Source of the DNA: Perkinsus chesapeaki
Lineage: Eukaryota; Perkinsozoa; Perkinsida; Perkinsidae
Assembly (NCBI GenBank): GCA_013115145.1
Contig: JAAPAO010000248.1
Span: 1-47,302 of the forward strand
Length of the DNA: 47,302 bases
Reading direction: 5' to 3'
The notes below the pieces were generated by a model. It worked only from the letters and a program-made list of their open reading frames with translations, had not been told where the DNA came from and searched no databases. Each line of letters begins with the position of its first letter. Position 1 is the stretch's first letter. A program made the translations under genes and the position numbers. This document shows positions 4,244 through 32,552 of this stretch, one piece after another.

Positions 4244-6076
4244 CTAATCTGGAGCAGGCCTTTGATCACAATCAATAACAACCTTGGTACCAGTCTCAGG
4301 GCACTCGACAGGTACACCGAGCCTGAACTCCAATAGGTCCTGTAAAGCCTTCATCCTTTTATATTCTGAATGAACCAAAACAACCTTCTTAGACGGTCGT
4401 AAGCCAGCCACCAGTTGAGATACCCCGTAGGAGTCTGTATGGTACGTCATCGGCACATAATAAGGCTTGCACCGAATGGCCAGTTTTCGTCCATCACCAT
4501 AGTTCACAGTAGGGGACCATTTAGGCCGCTTTCGAGGAGGGTGCTGTGTCTCATCCACCTTCCGCCTCTTATCAGCTTGAGACGCTATACTGATGAGCTC
4601 GTTGCCGACGGTACCGTTTCTGCAGTACCCTGTCAGAACAAACTGCGCGTCGGGATTGCCATTCTCACGATTGAAGAACGACAGACTTGCACCACCCTCC
4701 ATCATCGCTGCGCCACAAAATACCACACTAATGCAGTTTGGAGGGAACACGAAGTTGTCGTCGATAAGCTCTACCCTTGCCGCAGTGCTGGCGGCAGCCA
4801 TGGCTCCCATAGGGCCAGTGTCACCCTCGGCTAGGCCTAGACTGAGACGTCTGTAGTACTCATTGCACATATATGTCACCGAGCTAGTAGTGAAAAAACG
4901 AAGGTCGGGTGTGGGAGGCAAGCTAGCACCACCACCGCTGAGTCTTCTAGATTTCGGTCCATTTGGACGACCGAAAGCGCTTCCTGCTGCTGCACCGGCG
5001 GCTTTGATAGGCAAAGAATCCAGCAGGTCCTTGTTGAGGATCTCCCGCTTGTAATACGACAGGAACATCTGAGCCATTTCTGACACTCTACTGGTGGCAA
5101 ACACAGGCATGATAGTGATCAACGGTGGCACGCCCTGAGGCATGCCCAGGTATTCCCTCAGGCGGCTTTTACCGCATATTGTATCGCACAGGCTAGCCTC
5201 CTTCAATCGGCTGCTCAAATGAACCGAGCTGCCAAAGGTAGCCTCGGAGATAACGGCATCAATGACCTTGCCAGTGAGAGGAAGCTGTCTAGTCATCAGA
5301 TTTGCAGGTGGCATGGTGAACTCAGCTTGGGTGCTGAAGTCGCCAGTGTAGAATAGTGTCATGCCACCGTACTCTATCATGAACATAAGGGCCCCTACAA
5401 CATGGCCAGCAGGGTATGCCGTAACCAAGGCGCCACAAGCCAACTTCTTCCGCTCACCAGGGGCCATCACCTTGGCTCTGGTAAAGCAGGCCTCGACATG
5501 GCAAGGGCAATACAAGGCTGGCTTCTGGTCTTTAACGTAGTCTTTAAGCATCATAGGTGCCGTCAGCTTTGTCATCAGCGACATGAATATCTCTGGCTGC
5601 CGTGCCTCGCTTTCCATTAGTATCTCTGTAAGATACGGAAGGGCTCCAGTATGATCCAAATGGAAATGTGTGACCAGGATGGCATCTATCGGTAGCATCC
5701 CCGTCTTCGACTTGGATGAAGGCTGCTGCCCACGCCAGAGGTGGTCCAGTTTAGGCACTTTGTGGTGGTGCTTGGCAATCGATTTCAACACGGTCGTCCT
5801 CAGAGCGTTTCTATCATTCATTTCATCATCGGTCTCCTCGGAACTCTCGTCACTCTGATCTGGTCCAGATTCGTCATGTAAGGGGTCGCCACAGCCCACA
5901 TTAGCTCCGCAGTCCAGCAGTATGCGTACAGGAGGCTTGGACGTGGACCGGCGCGGGGTGAAAGTGGCTAGCACACATGAACGGCCGACACATCTACCAG
6001 CACCAAGGACTTCAAGTTCAATGCGGCCACCAGCTGCTGCTGCTCGACTCGACGATGAAGCGCTGCTCATCATCAT
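4244..6076 (-). CDS. INTS11: Integrator complex subunit 11-like metallo-beta-lactamase/beta-CASP RNA endonuclease
   Basis: Predicted catalytic RNA endonuclease of the Integrator complex (CPSF73 relative), cutting nascent RNAs in the nucleus. It is a single 610-residue exon, close to the roughly 600 residues of animal INTS11. The start LEVLGAGRCVGRSCVL and LLDCGANVG match the INTS11 N terminus. Zinc ligands are visible: HFHLDH (motif 2), AGHVVGA (motif 3) and YTGDFS (motif 4). The beta-CASP cassette opens at ISEATFGSS, and ligands resume at YHTDSYGVSQLV (His of motif B) and VLVHSEYKRM (motif C, usually VHGE). A low-complexity acidic insert (residues about 65-90) and a Ser/Gly/Pro insert (about 350-390) are lineage extras. 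Three consecutive Met codons open the frame, so the exact start is ambiguous by up to two residues. CPSF73 is the alternative, but the GAGRCVGRSC start favours INTS11. Confidence 0.88.
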   Translation of the reverse strand: MMMSSASSSSRAAAAGGRIELEVLGAGRCVGRSCVLATFTPRRSTSKPPVRILLDCGANVGCGDPLHDESGPDQSDESSEETDDEMNDRNALRTTVLKSIAKHHHKVPKLDHLWRGQQPSSKSKTGMLPIDAILVTHFHLDHTGALPYLTEILMESEARQPEIFMSLMTKLTAPMMLKDYVKDQKPALYCPCHVEACFTRAKVMAPGERKKLACGALVTAYPAGHVVGALMFMIEYGGMTLFYTGDFSTQAEFTMPPANLMTRQLPLTGKVIDAVISEATFGSSVHLSSRLKEASLCDTICGKSRLREYLGMPQGVPPLITIMPVFATSRVSEMAQMFLSYYKREILNKDLLDSLPIKAAGAAAGSAFGRPNGPKSRRLSGGGASLPPTPDLRFFTTSSVTYMCNEYYRRLSLGLAEGDTGPMGAMAAASTAARVELIDDNFVFPPNCISVVFCGAAMMEGGASLSFFNRENGNPDAQFVLTGYCRNGTVGNELISIASQADKRRKVDETQHPPRKRPKWSPTVNYGDGRKLAIRCKPYYVPMTYHTDSYGVSQLVAGLRPSKKVVLVHSEYKRMKALQDLLEFRLGVPVECPETGTKVVIDCDQRPAPD

Positions 6077-6248
6077 CGGCCTCCCTGGCCATTAAAGGAA
6101 GGCCTATACAACGCATGTAGAGGGGGGAGCGGACAACGCAAGAAACAGGGGAGGCGGGCAAAAAGGAGCAAGTGTACGAATATGGCATGGAACAGAAAGG
6201 CAATTTTATATAGGGATAAATCGAATAATCATGCACTTATATGTTCAC

Positions 6249-8926
6249 CTAACGACTGGTGATGCCACGACTCGGCCGTCTAGTATCGGTGACAGCGTGG
6301 GGCTCCGACTCAGAGCCTGGTAGAGCACGCATGGCCTGACGAATGGAGTCTACGAGAAGACCCGCAGAGACGGTTTGAGTGTTGCGGTCGAGCCCAAACA
6401 TCAAAACAGAGATTGGAGACCCAAATGGCACACAGGGAGAGCTTTCGCTGAATGAACCTCTTCGGCTAGTCGCCGGTTCGATCCCCGCCAGCGGAATTTC
6501 TCCCGCTGAATAATCACTCTCGCAGTAACCATCAGACCAATAGCCATTGTCACCATCCTCTGTCTCAACAGACGTGCTTGCCTCTGCAACTGCCTCGACC
6601 TCAGGCCAATCCAAATCAGCCGCGTTGGTCACAGCCTCCTCGACATACCCACAACAAGGGCAAGGCGAGGAGCCGGCGGCCGAGGCCGAGGAGCTCGATA
6701 CCGGGGAGCTAGGCGTAGATGAGACCACCGAAGGATCAGCCCATACACCACGAAGGCTCGGTAAGGGATCCTTGAGACACTCAGACATCTCACGGCTTTC
6801 GTCGCAAAGCTTATCAGCTGCCTGTTGTAGCCAATCAGGATGACCGCGCCAATACGGATCCGACCACAACAGAGTGTTAGCAGTGGAGCCGCACAGGATG
6901 ATGCTGTACAGGGAGGGAGGGGAAGTGCTGCGGTGGTGGTCTACACCTGAGAGAAGCGACACTAGAGACACTGATCGACATGATGTTAGCTGCTGCCGAC
7001 CTTCAGCTAGGTCCTCTTCCTCACCACCACTCAACTCTCCTGGGAGATCGACCTTGTTGCCATACTGATCCTCAATCACCATCTGGAGCTCATCACCGCC
7101 CTCTATTCCCTGAAGATTGTGTCGAGGGGAAGCGGAGCTGAGGTGATAGGCTGTTCGGCTGTTGGCAGTAGTCGCAGCTCCACCAAAGAACGCATCATCG
7201 ATGACTAAAATGAAAGACTCCGAACTAGCAGCACCGATTGCGAGCTTACCTATGCCGCCGGAGACCTTCGTCCCGGAAGCGTCCGACAACGGCACCGGAG
7301 TCTGAGTCAAATCAGCCGAGCTCGCCCTTGAAACCGACCGGCTGCTGCCTTCTCGAGGCGTTCCCGTGGGCGACTGAGCAACGGGCGCGGCTGCTGCTGC
7401 TGCAGACCATTTCTTCTTCCAATAGGCCGACTTATGTACTTCACCTGACCCCAGCCATCACCATCAACATCGGCGGCCCTATCCACGGCAGTAGCTTACG
7501 CTCCCTGTGCAGTATTATCCTAAGTGTGCCTATACTAGAGCCTAAAGCACATATCTCCCCTACTGGGGAATTGGGAAGGTCTCTAGGCTCAGCTGTGAGC
7601 TAAATAACAACAGCAATGATATCATCTACCCGTCCAAATGAAGGAGGACCCTACCACATGGTGTTCAGGGGTGACCATTGTCACATCATCCTCACCAGAA
7701 CTGGGCTTGTAATGCCACAAGGATACTTGTAACTTCACAACCGGACTACCGCCACCGCCGGTGCTGCTCGTCGGAGCCCTCTCATGCTGCTCGCCTGTGG
7801 CAGCCTCTCCTGTCACCAAATGCCGATGTCGTGGGCAGTCCCTCTGCTGCATTTCAGGGCGGCGAGGTGTACTAGCCCCACTACGGGGCGTTGTCATGCC
7901 CGCCTCCTTGAAGTAGGTGAAGGCCGGAAGTATACGAGTAAGCGGATAAAGCGAACCTGCAGTAGGTTTCAACTGCTGCACGCCTAGTAACCAGCTCACG
8001 AAGAGCCACAGCCATCCGTCTCAATATGGTCTCATCCTTGCTCCTCAACGACTCAGGCCGGCGGTCATCGGGAGGCTCGTCATCTATTGGAGTGAAATGG
8101 AAGTACCTGTAGTAGTAAAATGGTATCTTCGCACTGTGTAGATTTTCCATCATGACCATCTCTCCATGATAGAGCTTCGCTGCCTCCTCTTTGATGGCGT
8201 GGCCGCCGCCTTCTTGGTATCATTTCCACCCGAGGGGTCTTCAACAACTCTCTTAACTTCTAATGTATAAGATATCTTATTCTTAAATAGTTGGTCCGAT
8301 GCATTTAGATATGATCTGCAACCAAACTTCTCGGGTACCTGCAGACACCCAAGTGGTCCTGGAATAACGACTAAGACCAAACAAAGAAAGCTTAAAGTTC
8401 AAATACGGCCAACGCCGCCGCCGTACATCGATTTGAACTAGAATGCATCTTCAGAGCTTGGCATCAGTCACTTTTCGAAAATGACTCACCAGCGGCAATT
8501 GAAAAATAGACTAAGATAGACCTATTCGACGCCCGCTGATCCCCATTTAGAAGCCCACACCGTTCCTCGGCTCCCCCCTAAGATGCTAGGGGAAGCCCTT
8601 CGATAACCTACTAATAAGGCAAACTTCCGACATGGCACTGGCTCGCCCATGAGGTCCCTTGTCCTCGACTGTGCTATTATCTCACACGCCTTCACAGTGA
8701 ATTCATGATACCTTAACAACACCAGCAACTACTACTAGGTACCTATCACCGATACCACTGTAACCTACGCGGCAAAGAGGTCCTCAGTAGTAAGTCTAGG
8801 CGGCCCACCGGCGGCAACACCGACGATGGCTTGCTGTCTGGCAGGCGCTCCCGGCGAGGGGCGTGGTGGGAACGTTGGGGACTTGCCTCCGCCGTGGTCC
8901 ATGGCCAAGGCTGACACAGACGTCAT
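6249..8926 (-). CDS. ATG13: ATG13-like HORMA-domain protein (autophagy initiation), divergent
   Basis: Candidate scaffold of the ATG1/ULK autophagy-initiation complex. Joining exons by frame gives a start at 8926 (MTSVSALAMDHGGG), then a helix FTVKACEIIAQSRTRDLM that resembles the first helix of the ATG13 HORMA domain (FFALKTVQVIVQAR type). Next come a LEVKRVVED strand, YHGEMVMMENLHS, and RRMAVALRSLYPLTRILPAF, which matches the family signature LRSL(x)3(T/V)R(x)(T/L)PA(Y/F) well. This last match needs a 43-nt intron with a GTGAGC donor and CTGCAG acceptor. A later exon, SPVGEICALGSSIGTLRIIL, fits the terminal beta strands. The long tail to 6249 is Ser/Pro/acidic and disordered-looking, as in ATG13. 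There are roughly eight short introns; some edges are uncertain. The overall assignment is an inference from several weak matches in the right order. Confidence 0.6.
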
Positions 8927-9065: not shown

Positions 9066-9699
9066 TCAACCGCCGCCGGTCTCCTCGATGATTATCTAAA
9101 ACACGTATCACCACCCATCAGTTAGCCACGAGCCCATCACTCACCTCCGTGTCACCATTACTATCAACAACTATAACCTCTCCGTTACCAGCAGTGCCTT
9201 CTAGTAGTACCCCTGGATCAGAGGCAGTCTCATCGTTGGACATCTAAGGTTAGCAATACCAAAACACATCGTGAGCTATACCTCTACCACTGCCCCACGG
9301 CTATCTAAAACCACGACCTCCTGCCTCTCTCCAGCAGCAGCACTGGTATGCCGCCGCCGCCGCTCATCCGCATCAACAACAACAACATCTGGGCTACCGA
9401 GAGTTGTGACGCGTGGTCGGTGGTCCTCTGTTATTATAACTTTGTCTACCACCGAGCTAGGCTCCTCAGTTACTCTTTTTAGCACCTACTAGCCAGTCCT
9501 TCAACACTAGCTAGTAGATGGCCTGTACTTACCTCAACGTCACCAAAGTCATCTTCAACAATTATGTCATCCACCACTGTTCGTGGCTCAGCCTCGACGA
9601 CCTCCTCTATGATCTAAAGATGGGACTGTCTAGGCAAAGGGAAGGGTTAAAGTAGCAGTATACCTCCACAGAGTCACCATTACCCAGTATAATGGTCAT
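9066..9699 (-). CDS. Small acidic protein of Val/Ile-Glu exon modules (paralogue-like neighbour of 9976-10529)
   Basis: Not a recognised family. Five exons can be joined from ATG 9699 (MTIILGNGDSVE) to TGA 9066 (IIIEETGGG), all separated by short introns in phase 0, and each of the first four exons ends on a Glu codon before GT. Internal modules include IIEEVVEAEPRTVVDDIIV, VLKRVTEEPSSVVDKVIITE and GNGEVIVVDSNGDTE. The product, about 150 residues, is strongly acidic apart from a short Arg run (ERRRRH) and has no signal peptide or membrane segment. The same module style and phase-0 pattern occur in the gene immediately upstream, which suggests a local duplication. Function unknown. Confidence 0.55.
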
Positions 9700-9975
9700 T
9701 ATAGCAGCAAGTGTATAAATCGAAAACTAATAACAAAATCCCATAAGACTACCACTAAATAGTAATACACTATATCCATTAGACTACTACTATAATAATA
9801 ATACACTATATCCATTAGACTACCACCACTACCAACTTTAATAACAGTACCGTCGAATGCATTATAACTCAAGATAGACCCAATTAAGGTCTCAATAGAA
9901 ACGGTGTTGTTATAATGAAAGCAGGATCAAATACAAAATGATTCTAAACACACTTGTACGCACACACTAGGTTTA

Positions 9976-10529
9976 TCACTCAATGATGGTAGTCTCTTCA
10001 ATAACCACATCATCATCGCCAGGGACAACTCCCTCGACAACCTGAAAACAACTGTCAACTGTCTAACAGACGGCAATCTGTGGGAGGAGCGGTAATGCGA
10101 GATGTTTTGTACGATCTTATCATTTTATACGTCCAATGAGTTCTGCTCGTCGATTGACTAATGCATACCATCTGAGACTAGCGGATAAGTACCTGTGAGG
10201 ATGGTCCATAACCATCATCAATAACAACAGTTTCATCCTCAACAGTAGTTGTCTCCGGCACACTATTAACAATTTCAACCACCTGAAAGCATGCATCTCT
10301 ATGTCACTTCTCTATCCCCGTCACCTACCTGTCCTGGCATACCATCATCAATTACAGTAGTGTCTTCTATAATAACATCATCCGGGCTATAGGTCTCATC
10401 AGTAACGGTAGTTTCCTCAACTACCTCCGGATCTTCATCCACTACCACCTGCCAAAGCCATTACCCCACCTCAGACCGTATCTGGAAGCTCACCTGTGTT
10501 TGGTAGGGTTGTTGGATATAATACGACAT
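9976..10529 (-). CDS. Small acidic repeat protein; each exon is one repeat module
   Basis: Not a recognised family. Exons join from ATG 10529 (MSYYIQQPYQTQ) to TGA 9976. Every later exon starts VV(D/E), and each exon but the last ends on a Gln codon: VVVDEDPEVVEETTVTDET through IIEDTTVIDDGMPGQ; VVEIVNSVPETTTVEDET through VVIDDGYGPSSQ; VVEGVVPGDDDVVIEE through TTIIE. All introns are phase 0, one about 130 nt and the others 40-70 nt. The product is about 103 residues, very acidic and Thr/Val/Asp-rich, and probably unfolded or beta-rich. The alternating hydrophobic-acidic pattern recalls alveolin repeats, but lacks their Lys/Pro signature. It lies in a same-strand run between the Q-rich gene and its acidic relative. 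Confidence 0.55.
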
Positions 10530-24541: not shown

Positions 24542-27500
24542 ATGTTTGGAGGGGGAGGAGGCCTATTCGGGCAGCAGCAACAACAGAGTTCACAAGGTGG
24601 AGGCCTCTTTGGAGGAGGAGGAGGCATGTTTGGCCAGCAACAGGTAATACTATATCCTGCTCACATTCATACCACTCCTTTCCCAGAACACTGGAGGAGG
24701 GCTCTTTGGTAGCAGCCCACAGTCGGCTCAGGGCGGCGGTCTTTTTGGAGGTGGCAGCACTTTCGGCCAGCCGCAACAACAGCAACAACGCCCAGGAGGT
24801 CTCTTCGGAGGTGGAGGAGCATTTGGTCAGCAGGTAACCCCTTCGTCTCCTATCCAGCTCTTTACTACCTTTGTCAGTCCTCTGGCGGTGGCCTTTTTGG
24901 TGGCGGAGGAGGAGGAGCATTTGGCCAACAACAGAATACAGGCGGAGGGCTATTTGGCCAGCCGGCAGCAGCAGCAGGAGGAGGAGGAGGCATGTTCGGC
25001 CAGCAACAAGTAAGCCTTCAACTCGTTCAACACCAAATGGCTACCTCTTTTTAGAGTAGCGGAGGAGGCCTATTCGGAGGCGGTGGTGCCTTCGGTGGTG
25101 GAGGAGGGGCGTTCGGAGGAGGTGCGCAAAATGCAGGAACAGCGCAAGTGAAGTATCAACAGGTTATCGACCATGATTCACGCCTCAAAGTAGTCACCTG
25201 GTGGGCGGCGCTATTATTGGACCCTTTCTGCCACTCAGCTCGTTTCTATTACTGCTATGGATGCTTACAAGGGCAAGTCATTCGAAGAGCTACGGTATGA
25301 GGACTATGCTCAGGGTAGAGGGCCAGCGGGGGCGGCCGGGGCTACCGGAATGCAGCAACCTCAACAGCAACAGCAAGCTGGTAAGCATTCCGTCCCCTCT
25401 GCTCTCCACACTCCAGCATCAGGCGGCCTGTTCGGCGGTCAGCAGCAACAACAGTCTGGTGGAAGCGGGCTCTTTGGAGGTGGAGCATTTGGTCAGCCTC
25501 AACAACAGAGTGGTACTAACTGGGGAGCATATATGATTATATGCTTTATCAGGTGGAGGCCTATTTGGCGGAGGTATGCAGCAAAACACCGGCGGAGGTC
25601 TATTCGGCCAACAACAGAACACAGGTGGCGGCCTCTTTGGCCAGCAGCAAAATACTGGCGGTGGACTCTTCGGTGGAGGGGGAGGTGGAGGGATGTTCGG
25701 TCAGCAAAGCTCAAGTCAAGGTGGTCTATTTGGAGGGGGAGGTGGTGGAGGTGGCCTGTTTGGTCAACAGCAGTCTTCCTCACAAGGAGGTCTCTTTGGT
25801 GGAGGTGGCGGCGGCGGTCTCTTCGGCAGTCAGCCTCAGAGCAGCCAAGGAGGATTATTCGGCGGTGGAGGCGGTGGTGGACTATTTGGTCAGCAGCAGT
25901 CCTCGCAAGGAGGGGGTCTATTTGGTCAACAACAATCAAGTCAAGGAGGTGGCCTCTTTGGTGGTGGCCAGAACACTGGGGGCGGACTATTTGGAGGAGG
26001 CCAGGCAAGCGGTGGCGGTCTTTTCGGGTCGACGCCCAACACTGGTGGTGGTCTATTTGGTAATCAGCAGTCCTCCGGCGGTGGCCTCTTCGGAGGTGGG
26101 CAACAGTCTTCTGGTGGTGGACTATTTGGTGGTGGGCAGGCTGGTGGCGGAGGACTCTTTGGCAACACCCAGAGCAGTAGTGGAGGTGGCCTCTTCGGGG
26201 GTGGCGGCGGCGGTCTATTCGGAGGTGGTCAATCCTCCGGCGGTGGCCTCTTTGGTGGTCAGCAGTCGTCATCTGGCGGAGGCCTATTTGGCGGTGGCGG
26301 AGGAGGAGGTGGCCTGTTTGGCAACCAACAGAGCAGCAGCGGTGGCGGTCTATTCGGCGGTGGAGGAGGCGGAGGTCTCTTTGGCAACAAGCCTTCGACA
26401 GGCGGTGGCCTCTTCGGTAACACAGCGTCATCCGGTGGTGGCCTGTTTGGTCAGTCCTCCAGTGGTGGTAGCCTCTTTGGAGGTGGAGGTGGCGGAGGTG
26501 GTCTGTTTGGCAACTCGACATCCTCGTCTGGTGGTGGACTGTTTGGTGGTGGCGGAGGAGGCGGCGGCGGGCTCTTCGGTGGTAACAAGGCCACCGGAGG
26601 CGGCCTATTCGGCTCATCCCAGCCCCAAGGAGGAGGCCTATTTGGTGGTGGCAATCAGCAACAACAGCAAAGTGTGCAACTCGCCACACCAGCGTCATTG
26701 CCTGCTCCCCCACGACCAAGTGGATTGCTCCTTCCTAAGGAGGTTGATAAAAGTTTAGCATCATACCTCTGGAAGGAGGAGCCCAAGAGCCACGCTGCAC
26801 CTGCGCCCTCCACCAGTGGTAGTAGCCCTCAGACCCCACCACCATCCAGTAGGTCACCAGGCCTTTCACCACGCAGTGACAGGTAGTAAGGAGGGTTGCA
26901 TTCCCCAGCGCCATCATCACCGAGCTCGTCGTCTTTTTCAGGCTGTCTCTTCCTGGACCAGCACTCGGCGGTGCTCCACCATCACCTGTTAATCCATCAT
27001 CTATGCGGCACCTCTATCTTCGAGGTAACCCATCCTCACCAGGAGCATCAGCAGACCACGTACTCACTCCACGGAGCGCTATGACACCTAGAGCCACAGG
27101 CCGAGCCAGCACCATTAGCGGTAGTCTCGGCGGGGTGGGTTAACCCTATTTCATTGTCAGGTGGTGGCAGCACTAACCTATTGCTCGATGATGGCACCCT
27201 TCCTTTGCGGAACCCCGATGCTATCGGAAGCTCAGCCTTTGTCGCCCTAGCCGAGTAAGGTTACCCCCTACGGTTTCGCCATACCACCATTTCTTTAGGC
27301 ATCACCCTCATCACTCCAGCCCGGGACCAAGCAGCTTCGAGTATGGTTCGATGACGTCCCCGAGGAGATCACCACCAGCGATGACCAGCGATTACTTGGC
27401 AACTTCTTCCCTTGTGGACCACGAGCCTGATGTTATTATCACTCGACCGGGAATCATGTAACCTTTCTCACCCCGAACCCGCTTAATCAATGCTAGTTAC

Positions 27501-30018: not shown

Positions 30019-30228
30019 TGATATAACAATGATTTAAAGGAAGAGTGGTATATCAACACAAGAGGAAGGGGAGATAAATAATTCATAATATTGTTGTGAT
30101 GATGTTAGTATGCAAAGGTCAACTGCTGTTAAAAATAGTTCAATTGAAATGCTTCAGACGATACTGGGTAAATGGCGAACTTGTTGAGCCAGGATTGCCC
30201 TCGGAGACCAGCCACCTGAAGCCAGTTC

Positions 30229-31049
30229 TCAAGCTCTTAGAGGGACGACGAGCTCGACCTCACCTGAAGGGCTACGATGACGCGCTGAGGAGTCCTCGGT
30301 AATCTTATTAGATATTTCAAAGTCATAACAACTACGGCTGCCAGCCACACCAGGCTTAGGGAGCTGTAGACGGCTTGATTTCAACATACGTTGGCATACA
30401 TACCACACCACACCAGTCGCTGCTTCACCGCTCCTTATTGCCGACTTCACCTCCCTTGACATGCCCTGACTGGGATGATGACTAGAAGAGGCAACTACGT
30501 GGATTGGTATGGTCCATTGCTCAAACATCTCACGGTTATCGGATACACCGGAGAGGAAGTCAGCGATGACATTGAAGGTCCAAGAGCTAGCAGCTGCTGC
30601 TGTTGCAGCTGCGCCCCCGGTGATGGGTGTGCGGTGCTTTGGCACGAAGAAAGAGAGGACGATCGAGGCCTTCCGCTCAGGGCGGCGCTCAAGGAATCGG
30701 CAGAAATCTTGCAAGGCAGTCTTCACGGTCTTATCCACGTGGGGGTCATCCGACTTGGACTGAGAATGAAGAAATAGCTACGAGACGGTATGAGTTAAAT
30801 ACATAGTGAACATCAATAACATCGCTTGACACAGTAATGGGCTCTACACAGCTTTGGCCACCTATGCTTCGACCCAACAGAATTGTGTGGAGTATCTGAA
30901 GGAGGAGGCTATCCTCAAGCCTGGTGATCGTGACTGTAAGCACTCACCGCAGCCAGGGCTTCTTTTACATGGCCCATCGGCAATTGAATCTCCGGGCATA
31001 TGTGATACTCTACAGCAGAAGCCCTCCGAATCGCACTACCAGATGACAT
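30229..31049 (-). CDS. ATG101: ATG101 homologue (HORMA protein of the autophagy-initiation complex)
   Basis: HORMA partner that stabilises ATG13 in the ATG1/ULK complex. Three exons: start 31049 (MSSGSAIRRASAVEYHI through GHVKEALAA), a 52-nt intron with acceptor CTCCTTCAG, then ILHTILLGRSIGGQSCVEPI with TVSSDVIDVHY, a 43-nt intron, then SKSDDPHVDKTVKTALQDFC to the stop at 30229. The exon 1/2 join reproduces the human motif VEEAMLAVLHTVLLHRS almost residue for residue (VKEALAA/ILHTILLGRS). Later, SSWTFNVIADF (codons 30574-30582 encode WTF) matches the WF-finger Trp-Pro-Phe, and FEQWTIPIHVVASS matches WEVWTVKVHVVAL. Total about 241 residues against 218 in human. A last-exon alternative (donor after SPSG, 30249) would change the final few residues. 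It lies directly downstream of an AP2-domain gene on the same strand. Confidence 0.82.
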
Positions 31050-31277: not shown

Positions 31278-32474
31278 TCAGAAATGGGAGCAGAAGCCCT
31301 CCGGAATGGTGCTGTTGCCCCACGTCGTTGTTGCAGTGGGTGTAGAGTTTGATGCTCGAGTGGTACTACGGAAATTGTTATCGTCTAAAGACGGCTGTGG
31401 CGTAAGCCAGGGGGTTGATCCTGATGATCTATCCATAAGAGGAGAAGATGAGTGGAGGATATTACCAAAGAGGGAGGATTCGACAGCGGAAGGAGGACAG
31501 GGTATACCAGCAAATAGGTCAGCGGTATCAACGGCATGCCAGAGCTCACGGCAATTACCATCGTCATTATTAAGTCGCCTGCTGCCGATGCTGCGATCAT
31601 GCCCACCACTTCCTAGAAGAGGATCTGTAAGCATCATCGCGTCAAGGCTTTGTTGGTGTTGTTGATGCTGCTGCTGGCCAGAAGAATCAGTAGTGCTGGT
31701 AGTAAAGTGACTGCCGTTCGCAGGGGACCGTTTGAACAAGGACTCTCCACTGGCTCCTCCCCCAATGTATAGGCTATCATCAACATGCCCCCCAGAAGAT
31801 GGGTTATCAGGTTTAGATCGGGACACTCTCATCGCAGAAATCATGTCTCGAACTTGGGCTTCAGTTGCCTTGTTGTTCTTCGCGGCAATCAACCGTTCTC
31901 TGTCTCTTGCGGCCTCCTCCATAGTTCGTCGTAGAGGTCCATAAATTCTCTTCTTGTCAACATATACTGTTGAGACGTACCCACCAGCATTCTTCCATAC
32001 ACCCGGCGGAGCCGTATAACTTTTCCTTCTACCAACGCTCCTGTTCATCTTAACGTTACCACTGAGAGATCGTTGGCTGTCAGCTCTGATCGGGCCAGAA
32101 CTAACCGAGTTGTTAGTGGGCCAATACCCTGGAATGGACTCCAAGGGGTATGCGGCCAGAGCTGCCATCAGAGAAGAGCGGCTGTTCTCCTGACCAGATC
32201 GCGGCGGCAGCAGCTGGCCTGTCGGCAAAACACCGAAAACCGACGGTTGTTGATAAGCGAAGCGATTCACTTGGAATGGCCCATGTTGGGGTAGAGCACA
32301 ATTAGGAGCAGTATATGGATGAACGGAAGTGAAATGGAAGAAGTCAGCTGCCGCTCGACCAGACCCATCTCGACGCTCCAGCTTTTGAAGAGCTTGTGGT
32401 ACGTGTGGCTCCGTTAACGACCAAGGAGAATCCATCAACATGCTGAAAGCAGCATTACACCTTTCCTTCCCCAT
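31278..32474 (-). CDS. AP2/ERF-domain protein (ApiAP2-type candidate transcription factor)
   Basis: Intronless frame of about 398 residues starting at ATG 32474 (MGKERCNAAFSMLMDSP). A single AP2-like DNA-binding domain lies near residues 150-200: PPGVWKNAGGYVSTVYVDKK, RIYGPLRRTMEEAARDRERL, IAAKN, with the three-strand then helix pattern. A basic patch (MNRSVGRRKSYTA) precedes it. The remainder is Ser/Gln/Pro-rich, including HQQHQQ and SSSP stretches, as usual for activation or linker regions. ApiAP2 factors are the main sequence-specific regulators of apicomplexans and occur in perkinsids; a role here is inferred from the domain only. A GTG codon three residues upstream is in frame but not needed. 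Confidence 0.8.
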   Translation of the reverse strand: MGKERCNAAFSMLMDSPWSLTEPHVPQALQKLERRDGSGRAAADFFHFTSVHPYTAPNCALPQHGPFQVNRFAYQQPSVFGVLPTGQLLPPRSGQENSRSSLMAALAAYPLESIPGYWPTNNSVSSGPIRADSQRSLSGNVKMNRSVGRRKSYTAPPGVWKNAGGYVSTVYVDKKRIYGPLRRTMEEAARDRERLIAAKNNKATEAQVRDMISAMRVSRSKPDNPSSGGHVDDSLYIGGGASGESLFKRSPANGSHFTTSTTDSSGQQQHQQHQQSLDAMMLTDPLLGSGGHDRSIGSRRLNNDDGNCRELWHAVDTADLFAGIPCPPSAVESSLFGNILHSSSPLMDRSSGSTPWLTPQPSLDDNNFRSTTRASNSTPTATTTWGNSTIPEGFCSHF

Positions 32475-32552
32475 CAACAACACTCATTATTATCATGATA
32501 CATGATGGTGAATTTAACATGAACACACAACCTATCAAACTGGACCATCAGC

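What the first reader, a model, noticed from the sequence alone, without database searches (positions are those of the whole stretch)
6249..8926. Divergent ATG13 candidate sharing the window with ATG101
The spliced exons show FTVKACEIIAQSRTRDL, a LEVKRVVED strand, and VALRSLYPLTRILPAF, in the order of the ATG13 HORMA domain, followed by a disordered tail. ATG13 and ATG101 form a HORMA heterodimer in animals and fission yeast. Finding both within 25 kb suggests a retained, possibly ATG101-dependent, autophagy-initiation complex.
Basis: inference. Interest (0 to 1): 0.75.

Follow-up and report, generated by a model that had tools for sequence, protein, structure and literature searches.

The report
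Perkinsus autophagy-initiation proteins ATG13 and ATG101
This stretch of a shellfish-parasite-like genome carries intact, intron-split genes for two partner proteins that start cellular self-digestion, in a group of organisms where several published surveys reported that parts of this starter machinery are missing.

Summary
Confirmed. The minus-strand gene at 6249-8926 has seven exons and encodes 714 residues. Its HORMA half passes Pfam's ATG13 cut-off (PF10033, 40.0 bits, E 4.7e-10). A Perkinsus olseni protein, already auto-labelled ATG13, matches it, and 6 of 6 exon joins agree, so the organism is a Perkinsus or close perkinsozoan (Alveolata). The 30 kb gene is ATG101 (PF07855, 66.5 bits); its model needed a 43-nt second intron and a fourth exon ending at 30154. 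The same assembly has an ATG17/FIP200-like scaffold just over its cut-off (43.2 against 43 bits), weak ATG9 pieces in profile order on one contig and two ATG8 loci. An ATG1 kinase was not settled. The 'disordered tail' contains six conserved blocks. The 21 kb linkage is probably coincidence. The families are known and the orthologue already carries an automatic label, so this is a new member of a known kind. Its value is evolutionary: a ciliate survey found these proteins absent, and a review leaves open whether the complex was lost or never present in many protists.

The parts
8769..8926 (-). ATG13 exon 1 (start codon at 8926)
   Evidence: junction agrees with P. olseni
8612..8711 (-). ATG13 exon 2, YHEFTVKACEIIAQSRTRDL, read as the first HORMA helix
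8157..8338 (-). ATG13 exon 3, KISYTLEVKRVVED to IMERW
   Evidence: the PF10033 match begins here
8000..8106 (-). ATG13 exon 4, YFHFTPIDDEPP to RRMAVAL
7655..7956 (-). ATG13 exon 5, RSLYPLTRILPAFTYFKEAG and KLQVSLWHY
7500..7599 (-). ATG13 exon 6, GSSIGTLRIILHRE, read as the end of the HORMA domain
6249..7444 (-). ATG13 exon 7, long tail with six conserved blocks, stop codon at 6249
30948..31049 (-). ATG101 exon 1
30803..30895 (-). ATG101 exon 2 (preferred 43-nt following intron; raises the Pfam score from 58.5 to 66.5 bits over the 22-nt alternative)
30264..30759 (-). ATG101 exon 3, with SWTF (candidate WF finger) and EQWTIPIHVV
   Evidence: conserved in P0002
30154..30215 (-). ATG101 exon 4, GWSPRAILAQQVRHLPSIV and stop
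   Evidence: same residues in P0002

Best explanation
The gene at 8926-6249 is a true, intact, single-locus ATG13 of a Perkinsus-type alveolate. Its N-terminal HORMA domain most likely pairs with the HORMA protein ATG101 encoded 21 kb away. Together they would recruit ATG9 vesicles, while the long tail, through short conserved blocks, would tie the pair to an ATG17/FIP200-like scaffold and to a kinase. Shown here: family membership of ATG13, ATG101 and (narrowly) the scaffold by profile, conservation of the ATG13 exon joins, presence of ATG8 and probable presence of ATG9. Inferred from the human and yeast systems: the pairing, the tail's binding role and starvation control.
For: PF10033 40.0 bits, E 4.7e-10, cut-off 25, on the first 336 residues of the corrected model (the first full-length model gave 37.6 bits; the full 714-aa model was not scanned). 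The P. olseni orthologue gives 37.8 bits. 6 of 6 exon joins agree with P. olseni. ATG101 PF07855 66.5 bits, E 3.1e-18, cut-off 26.5; in the PDB search with the earlier 248-aa model the best 4 of 6 hits were ATG101 chains, E 0.011-0.015. Reversed ATG13, ATG101 (248-aa model) and scaffold matched none of these families. Scaffold PF04108 43.2 bits, E 4.7e-11, cut-off 43, profile 11-353 of 355. ATG9: three pieces in profile order on contig C593, 18-20 bits each, cut-off 27. ATG8: two loci over the cut-off. ATG13: 7 of 7 genome matches lie at this locus.
Against: The PDB sequence search with ATG13 found no ATG13 chain, only one unrelated chain at E 0.49; the scaffold found no chain at all at E up to 10. 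Protein database searches found only the P. olseni ATG13 (1 hit among 7989 scored candidates; 1 among 1312) and only P0002 for ATG101 (1 among 3483). The window's ATG13 match covers only profile positions 84-158 of 233. No ATG9 piece reaches the cut-off, the N-terminal and C-terminal matches span 3 and 1 in-frame TAG, and 6 of 8 further ORFs of that region that I scanned matched nothing (2 of 5 matched, 0 of 3). The fold of P0001 alone has mean pLDDT 38.4 and that of ATG101 exon 3 has 43.9; their helix-strand orders are merely compatible with HORMA. Neither ATG1 C-terminal model nor the ATG11 C-terminal model matched the assembly, although the same kind of search also missed ATG13 itself. No transcripts were available.
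Confidence: 0.88

Rival explanations
1. The domain is another HORMA protein (Mad2, Rev7, Hop1 or p31comet type) or an unrelated protein that looks like ATG13 by a few motifs.
For: Only one close relative is known, so the profile evidence rests on a stretch of about 75 profile positions.
Against: No other Pfam family matched the HORMA half at E up to 10 (HMMER's filters drop most weak matches), and two proteins 57% identical both match ATG13 above the curated cut-off. A HORMA domain followed by a long tail is the ATG13 layout (passages of PMC9931213). ATG101 and an ATG17-like scaffold occur in the same assembly.
Confidence: 0.04
2. ATG13 and ATG101 are kept, but the complex works without a canonical ATG1: the kinase is lost or replaced by a kinase of another family.
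For: Models of the ATG1 C-terminal MIT domains found nothing. The best ULK1-like kinase (C240) has a long C-terminal part without a recognised MIT domain, and its lead over CaM kinase 1D is about 10 bits.
Against: The genome search reads exon by exon and missed ATG13 itself, so absence is weak evidence. The 7 best of 29 PDB sequences for the C240 kinase were ULK1.
Confidence: 0.2
3. The 21 kb linkage of ATG13 and ATG101 is a functional cluster rather than coincidence.
For: Both genes lie on the same strand of one 47 kb contig.
Against: At least three unrelated genes lie between them, one on the other strand. No second genome could be compared, and the pair was picked after the fact.
Confidence: 0.05

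Closest known systems
Perkinsus olseni FOZ60_014661, UniRef label beginning 'Autophagy-related protein 13 N-term' (P0001)
   Same: Orthologue: 396 of 691 aligned positions identical, HORMA core 136 of 162, 6 of 6 exon joins the same, PF10033 match
   Different: Tail shorter and diverged (169 of 307 aligned residues identical); NCBI lists it as a hypothetical protein
Human ATG13:ATG101 HORMA pair
   Same: Both partners are encoded; the ATG101 candidate has a W-x-F (SWTF, placed by eye against the human WF finger, whose sequence I recall); HORMA domain then a long tail
   Different: The ATG13 HORMA has a low-complexity insert (residues 203-258); the tail blocks have no counterpart that I could identify; binding not tested
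Human FIP200 N-terminal domain / yeast Atg17
   Same: The C53 gene has a nearly full-length ATG17-like domain (43.2 bits) behind an N-terminal part that I read by eye as ubiquitin-like
   Different: It seems to end beside tRNA genes with no ATG11 C-terminal domain found, though its stop overlaps a donor-like GTGAGT, so further exons are not excluded

Membership tests
ATG13 | HORMA domain matching the ATG13 profile PF10033 above its cut-off | tested here: met
   40.0 bits against 25; orthologue 37.8 bits; reversed control no match
ATG13 | Long tail with FIP200/ATG17- and ATG1-binding motifs | tested here: inconclusive
   Tail present with six conserved blocks; binding motifs not identified
ATG13 | HORMA fold in a confident structure | tested here: inconclusive
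   Orthologue folded without relatives, mean pLDDT 38.4
ATG101 | ATG101 profile PF07855 above its cut-off | tested here: met
   66.5 bits against 26.5
ATG101 | WF finger | tested here: inconclusive
   W-T-F present and conserved in P0002; its placement was judged by eye
ULK1/ATG1 complex | ATG17/FIP200-type scaffold | tested here: met
   PF04108 43.2 bits, only just over the cut-off of 43; reversed control no match; no PDB match
ULK1/ATG1 complex | ATG1/ULK kinase with C-terminal MIT domains | tested here: inconclusive
   No MIT match; ULK1-like kinase domain; the genome search is exon-blind
ULK1/ATG1 complex | ATG13 binds ATG101 and the scaffold | not testable with these tools
   No two-chain folding or binding data available

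The most novel reading that the evidence does not exclude
Perkinsozoa keep an animal-like ATG13:ATG101 HORMA pair on a pared-down, stand-alone FIP200-N-terminal-like scaffold without a claw, run by a kinase that is not a canonical MIT-bearing ATG1. The common ancestor of myzozoans would then have had the whole initiation complex, and apicomplexans would have lost ATG13, ATG101 and the scaffold.
Probability: 0.25. Interest if true: 0.62.

Novelty: new member of a known kind. Interest (0 to 1): 0.45.

Why it matters
[quoted passage not shown] A ciliate survey reported Atg1, Atg13, Atg17 and Atg101 absent (PMC5244887, passages). A 2024 algal review says photosynthetic alveolates were left out of the surveys, apart from several ATG genes reported in one dinoflagellate (PMC11449223, passages). 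ATG13, ATG101 and an ATG17-like scaffold in one parasitic-type alveolate genome favour ancient presence and later loss. Published results already lean that way and limit the surprise: ATG1, ATG13 and ATG101 occur in most algal lineages, the HORMA families are thought to have split before the last eukaryotic common ancestor (PMC5579357, passages), an ATG13 was reported in the parasite Trichomonas (PMC7539657, passages), and ATG1 and ATG9 matches were reported in Toxoplasma and chromerids (PMC8128441, passages). PMC12467227 (passages) reports that Perkinsus keeps TORC1 and TORC2, so the usual upstream regulator of ATG13 may be there too.

Tried and rejected
Tried without use: the PDB sequence searches with ATG13 and with the scaffold (no match); folding P0001 alone (pLDDT 38.4) and ATG101 exon 3 with P0002 (43.9), so no structure search was run on either. 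The exon-3 stretch that was folded (30229-30759) runs past the final model's exon end at 30264, so its last residues are intron under that model. Aligning separate exons to P0001 misplaced several fragments. Domain searches of the assembly for PF10033, PF12063, PF21127 and PF10377 were empty and are weak as negatives, because PF10033 missed the known gene. I entered a wrong accession (PF12033); its empty answer means nothing. One search's PF04108 search also rang in 8 of 14 control genomes, so I relied instead on the joined protein and its reversed control. Two shuffled scaffold sequences were printed but never scanned.

Rejected: the 22-nt ATG101 intron, in favour of a 43-nt one; the first 698-aa ATG13 model, replaced by the 714-aa one; the C240 kinase as a proven ATG1.

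Full report
What was checked. The finding names a spliced minus-strand gene at 6249-8926. Reading that strand, I joined seven exons by GT-AG introns into a protein (698 aa). A database search found one relative, P. olseni FOZ60_014661 (1 hit among 7989 scored candidates), and its alignment showed that my exon 5 ended early and my exon 6 began late, 16 residues in all. The corrected model has 714 residues, introns of 57, 273, 50, 43, 55 and 55 nt, ATG at 8926 and the stop at 6249. 6 of 6 joins then agree with the P. olseni protein. That protein is itself a gene prediction, so the agreement is evidence of conserved coding sequence across the joins, not of transcripts.

What it is. Pfam's ATG13 model matches the first 336 residues at 40.0 bits, E 4.7e-10, cut-off 25, and the P. 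olseni protein at 37.8 bits; the reversed 336 residues match nothing. The match covers profile positions 84-158 of 233. The PDB sequence search found no ATG13, and no relative other than the P. olseni protein turned up, so the protein is strongly diverged. In the window's assembly (35.4 Mb, 884 contigs, the window being the whole of contig C166) 7 of 7 matches of the protein lie at this one locus.

Organism. The only named relative is from Perkinsus (Perkinsozoa, Alveolata). At 57% overall identity I take this to be another Perkinsus species or a close perkinsozoan; the species was not identified.

The tail. Identity to P. olseni is 136 of 162 residues in the HORMA core, 29 of 48 in an insert, 69 of 72 in the HORMA's C-terminal part and 169 of 307 in the tail. 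Six tail blocks (windows of 12 with at least 9 identities, merged; 13-28 residues long, 73-80% identical) stand out; they include VIDDAFFGG, ELQMVIEDQYGNKVDLPGEL, DPYWRGHPDWLQQA and CLKDPLPSLRGVWA. In the human complex the ATG13 tail holds the FIP200 and ULK1 binding segments (passages of PMC12187132 and PMC9931213). That these blocks do the same is inference.

The partner. The gene at 30 kb is ATG101. My first model scored 58.6 bits. The only database relative was P0002, an unnamed 166-aa protein covering 54% of the query. It carries GWSPRAILAQQVRHLPSIV, which the window encodes as a fourth exon at 30154-30215. Replacing a 22-nt intron by a 43-nt one in the same phase raised the score from 58.5 to 66.5 bits. 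The final protein has 250 residues. It holds W-T-F in a region that I align by eye with the human WF finger; P0002 keeps it. A plant study calls the WF finger strictly conserved among ATG101 proteins (passages of PMC9127664).

The rest of the machinery. Contig C53 has an ATG17-like match (the same search also rang in 8 of 14 control genomes). Joined across a 50-nt intron, with a start codon that I chose, the 569-aa protein scores 43.2 bits against a cut-off of 43, over profile positions 11-353 of 355; its reverse matches nothing, and no PDB chain matches it. The gene appears to end beside a tRNA-Ala gene and no ATG11 C-terminal domain was found, but its stop overlaps a donor-like GTGAGT. ATG9 shows three weak pieces in profile order on contig C593: profile 5-70 (19.6 bits, spanning 3 TAG), 262-304 (18.2 bits) and 319-368 (18.9 bits, spanning 1 TAG); none reaches the cut-off of 27. 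Of 8 ORFs of that region that I scanned, 2 matched ATG9 (2 of 5, 0 of 3). ATG8 has two loci over the cut-off. The kinase is open: the best ULK1-like kinase domain, on C240 (the best of 17 matches), hits ULK1 as the top 7 of 29 PDB sequences but only about 10 bits above CaM kinase 1D, and its C-terminal part has no recognised MIT domain. Negative domain searches are weak, because the search reads exon by exon and missed ATG13 itself.

How it most likely works. As in animals (passages of PMC9931213), the ATG13 and ATG101 HORMA domains would form a pair that binds ATG9, and the ATG13 tail would connect it to the scaffold and the kinase. Only the presence of the parts is shown here. The 21 kb proximity is probably chance: at least three unrelated genes lie between (ankyrin, FG-nucleoporin and XPG-like ORFs), one on the other strand, and no second genome could be compared.

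Literature. Searches for ATG13/ATG101 with alveolate, dinoflagellate, ciliate, Perkinsus, Perkinsozoa and chromerid terms (lists capped at 12-25 rows, showing 15 of 4,807) listed no paper that I recognised as reporting ATG13 or ATG101 in Perkinsus. I saw passages of 13 papers and read one short section of one of them; no whole text was read, and most subscription papers are not in this library. A survey of 67 protists that included PF10033 and PF07855 (passages of PMC7539657) does not name Perkinsus in its main text; its figures and supplements were not seen. It does report an ATG13 in Trichomonas. PMC5579357 (passages) holds that the HORMA families, ATG13 and ATG101 among them, likely descend from a protein that duplicated before the last eukaryotic common ancestor, and PMC8128441 (passages) reports ATG1 and ATG9 matches in Toxoplasma and chromerids. 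The P. olseni protein carries an automatic ATG13 label in UniRef, so the identity itself is not new.

Noticed in passing
L003 (G000:C501) and L005 (G000:C245): Two ATG8 loci; by eye one reading ends ...YSAENTLGN and the other ...YSSENTLG with the terminal glycine exposed (that last ORF had no Pfam match), as I recall for apicomplexan ATG8. Exons not joined.
   Followed up: partly
L033 (G000:C240) and L034 (G000:C248): Two kinases that look related by eye, best PDB match ULK1 for the first, each with a long C-terminal part of no recognised family.
   Followed up: partly
L032:5832-7591: FIP200/ATG17-like scaffold gene (minus strand) that seems to stop beside tRNA genes, with no ATG11 C-terminal domain found.
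   Followed up: partly
25537-26886 +: GLFG-repeat nucleoporin (PF13634).
   Followed up: no
4244-6091 -: Beta-CASP metallo-beta-lactamase RNA nuclease-like ORF, directly downstream of ATG13.
   Followed up: no
31278-32483 -: ORF with an AP2-like stretch (YTAPPGVWKNAGGYVSTVYVDKKRIYGPL) by eye; no Pfam match at E up to 1.
   Followed up: no
9118-10460 -: Several short ORFs repeating acidic VVDD/IEDTTVIDD-like motifs upstream of ATG13.
   Followed up: no
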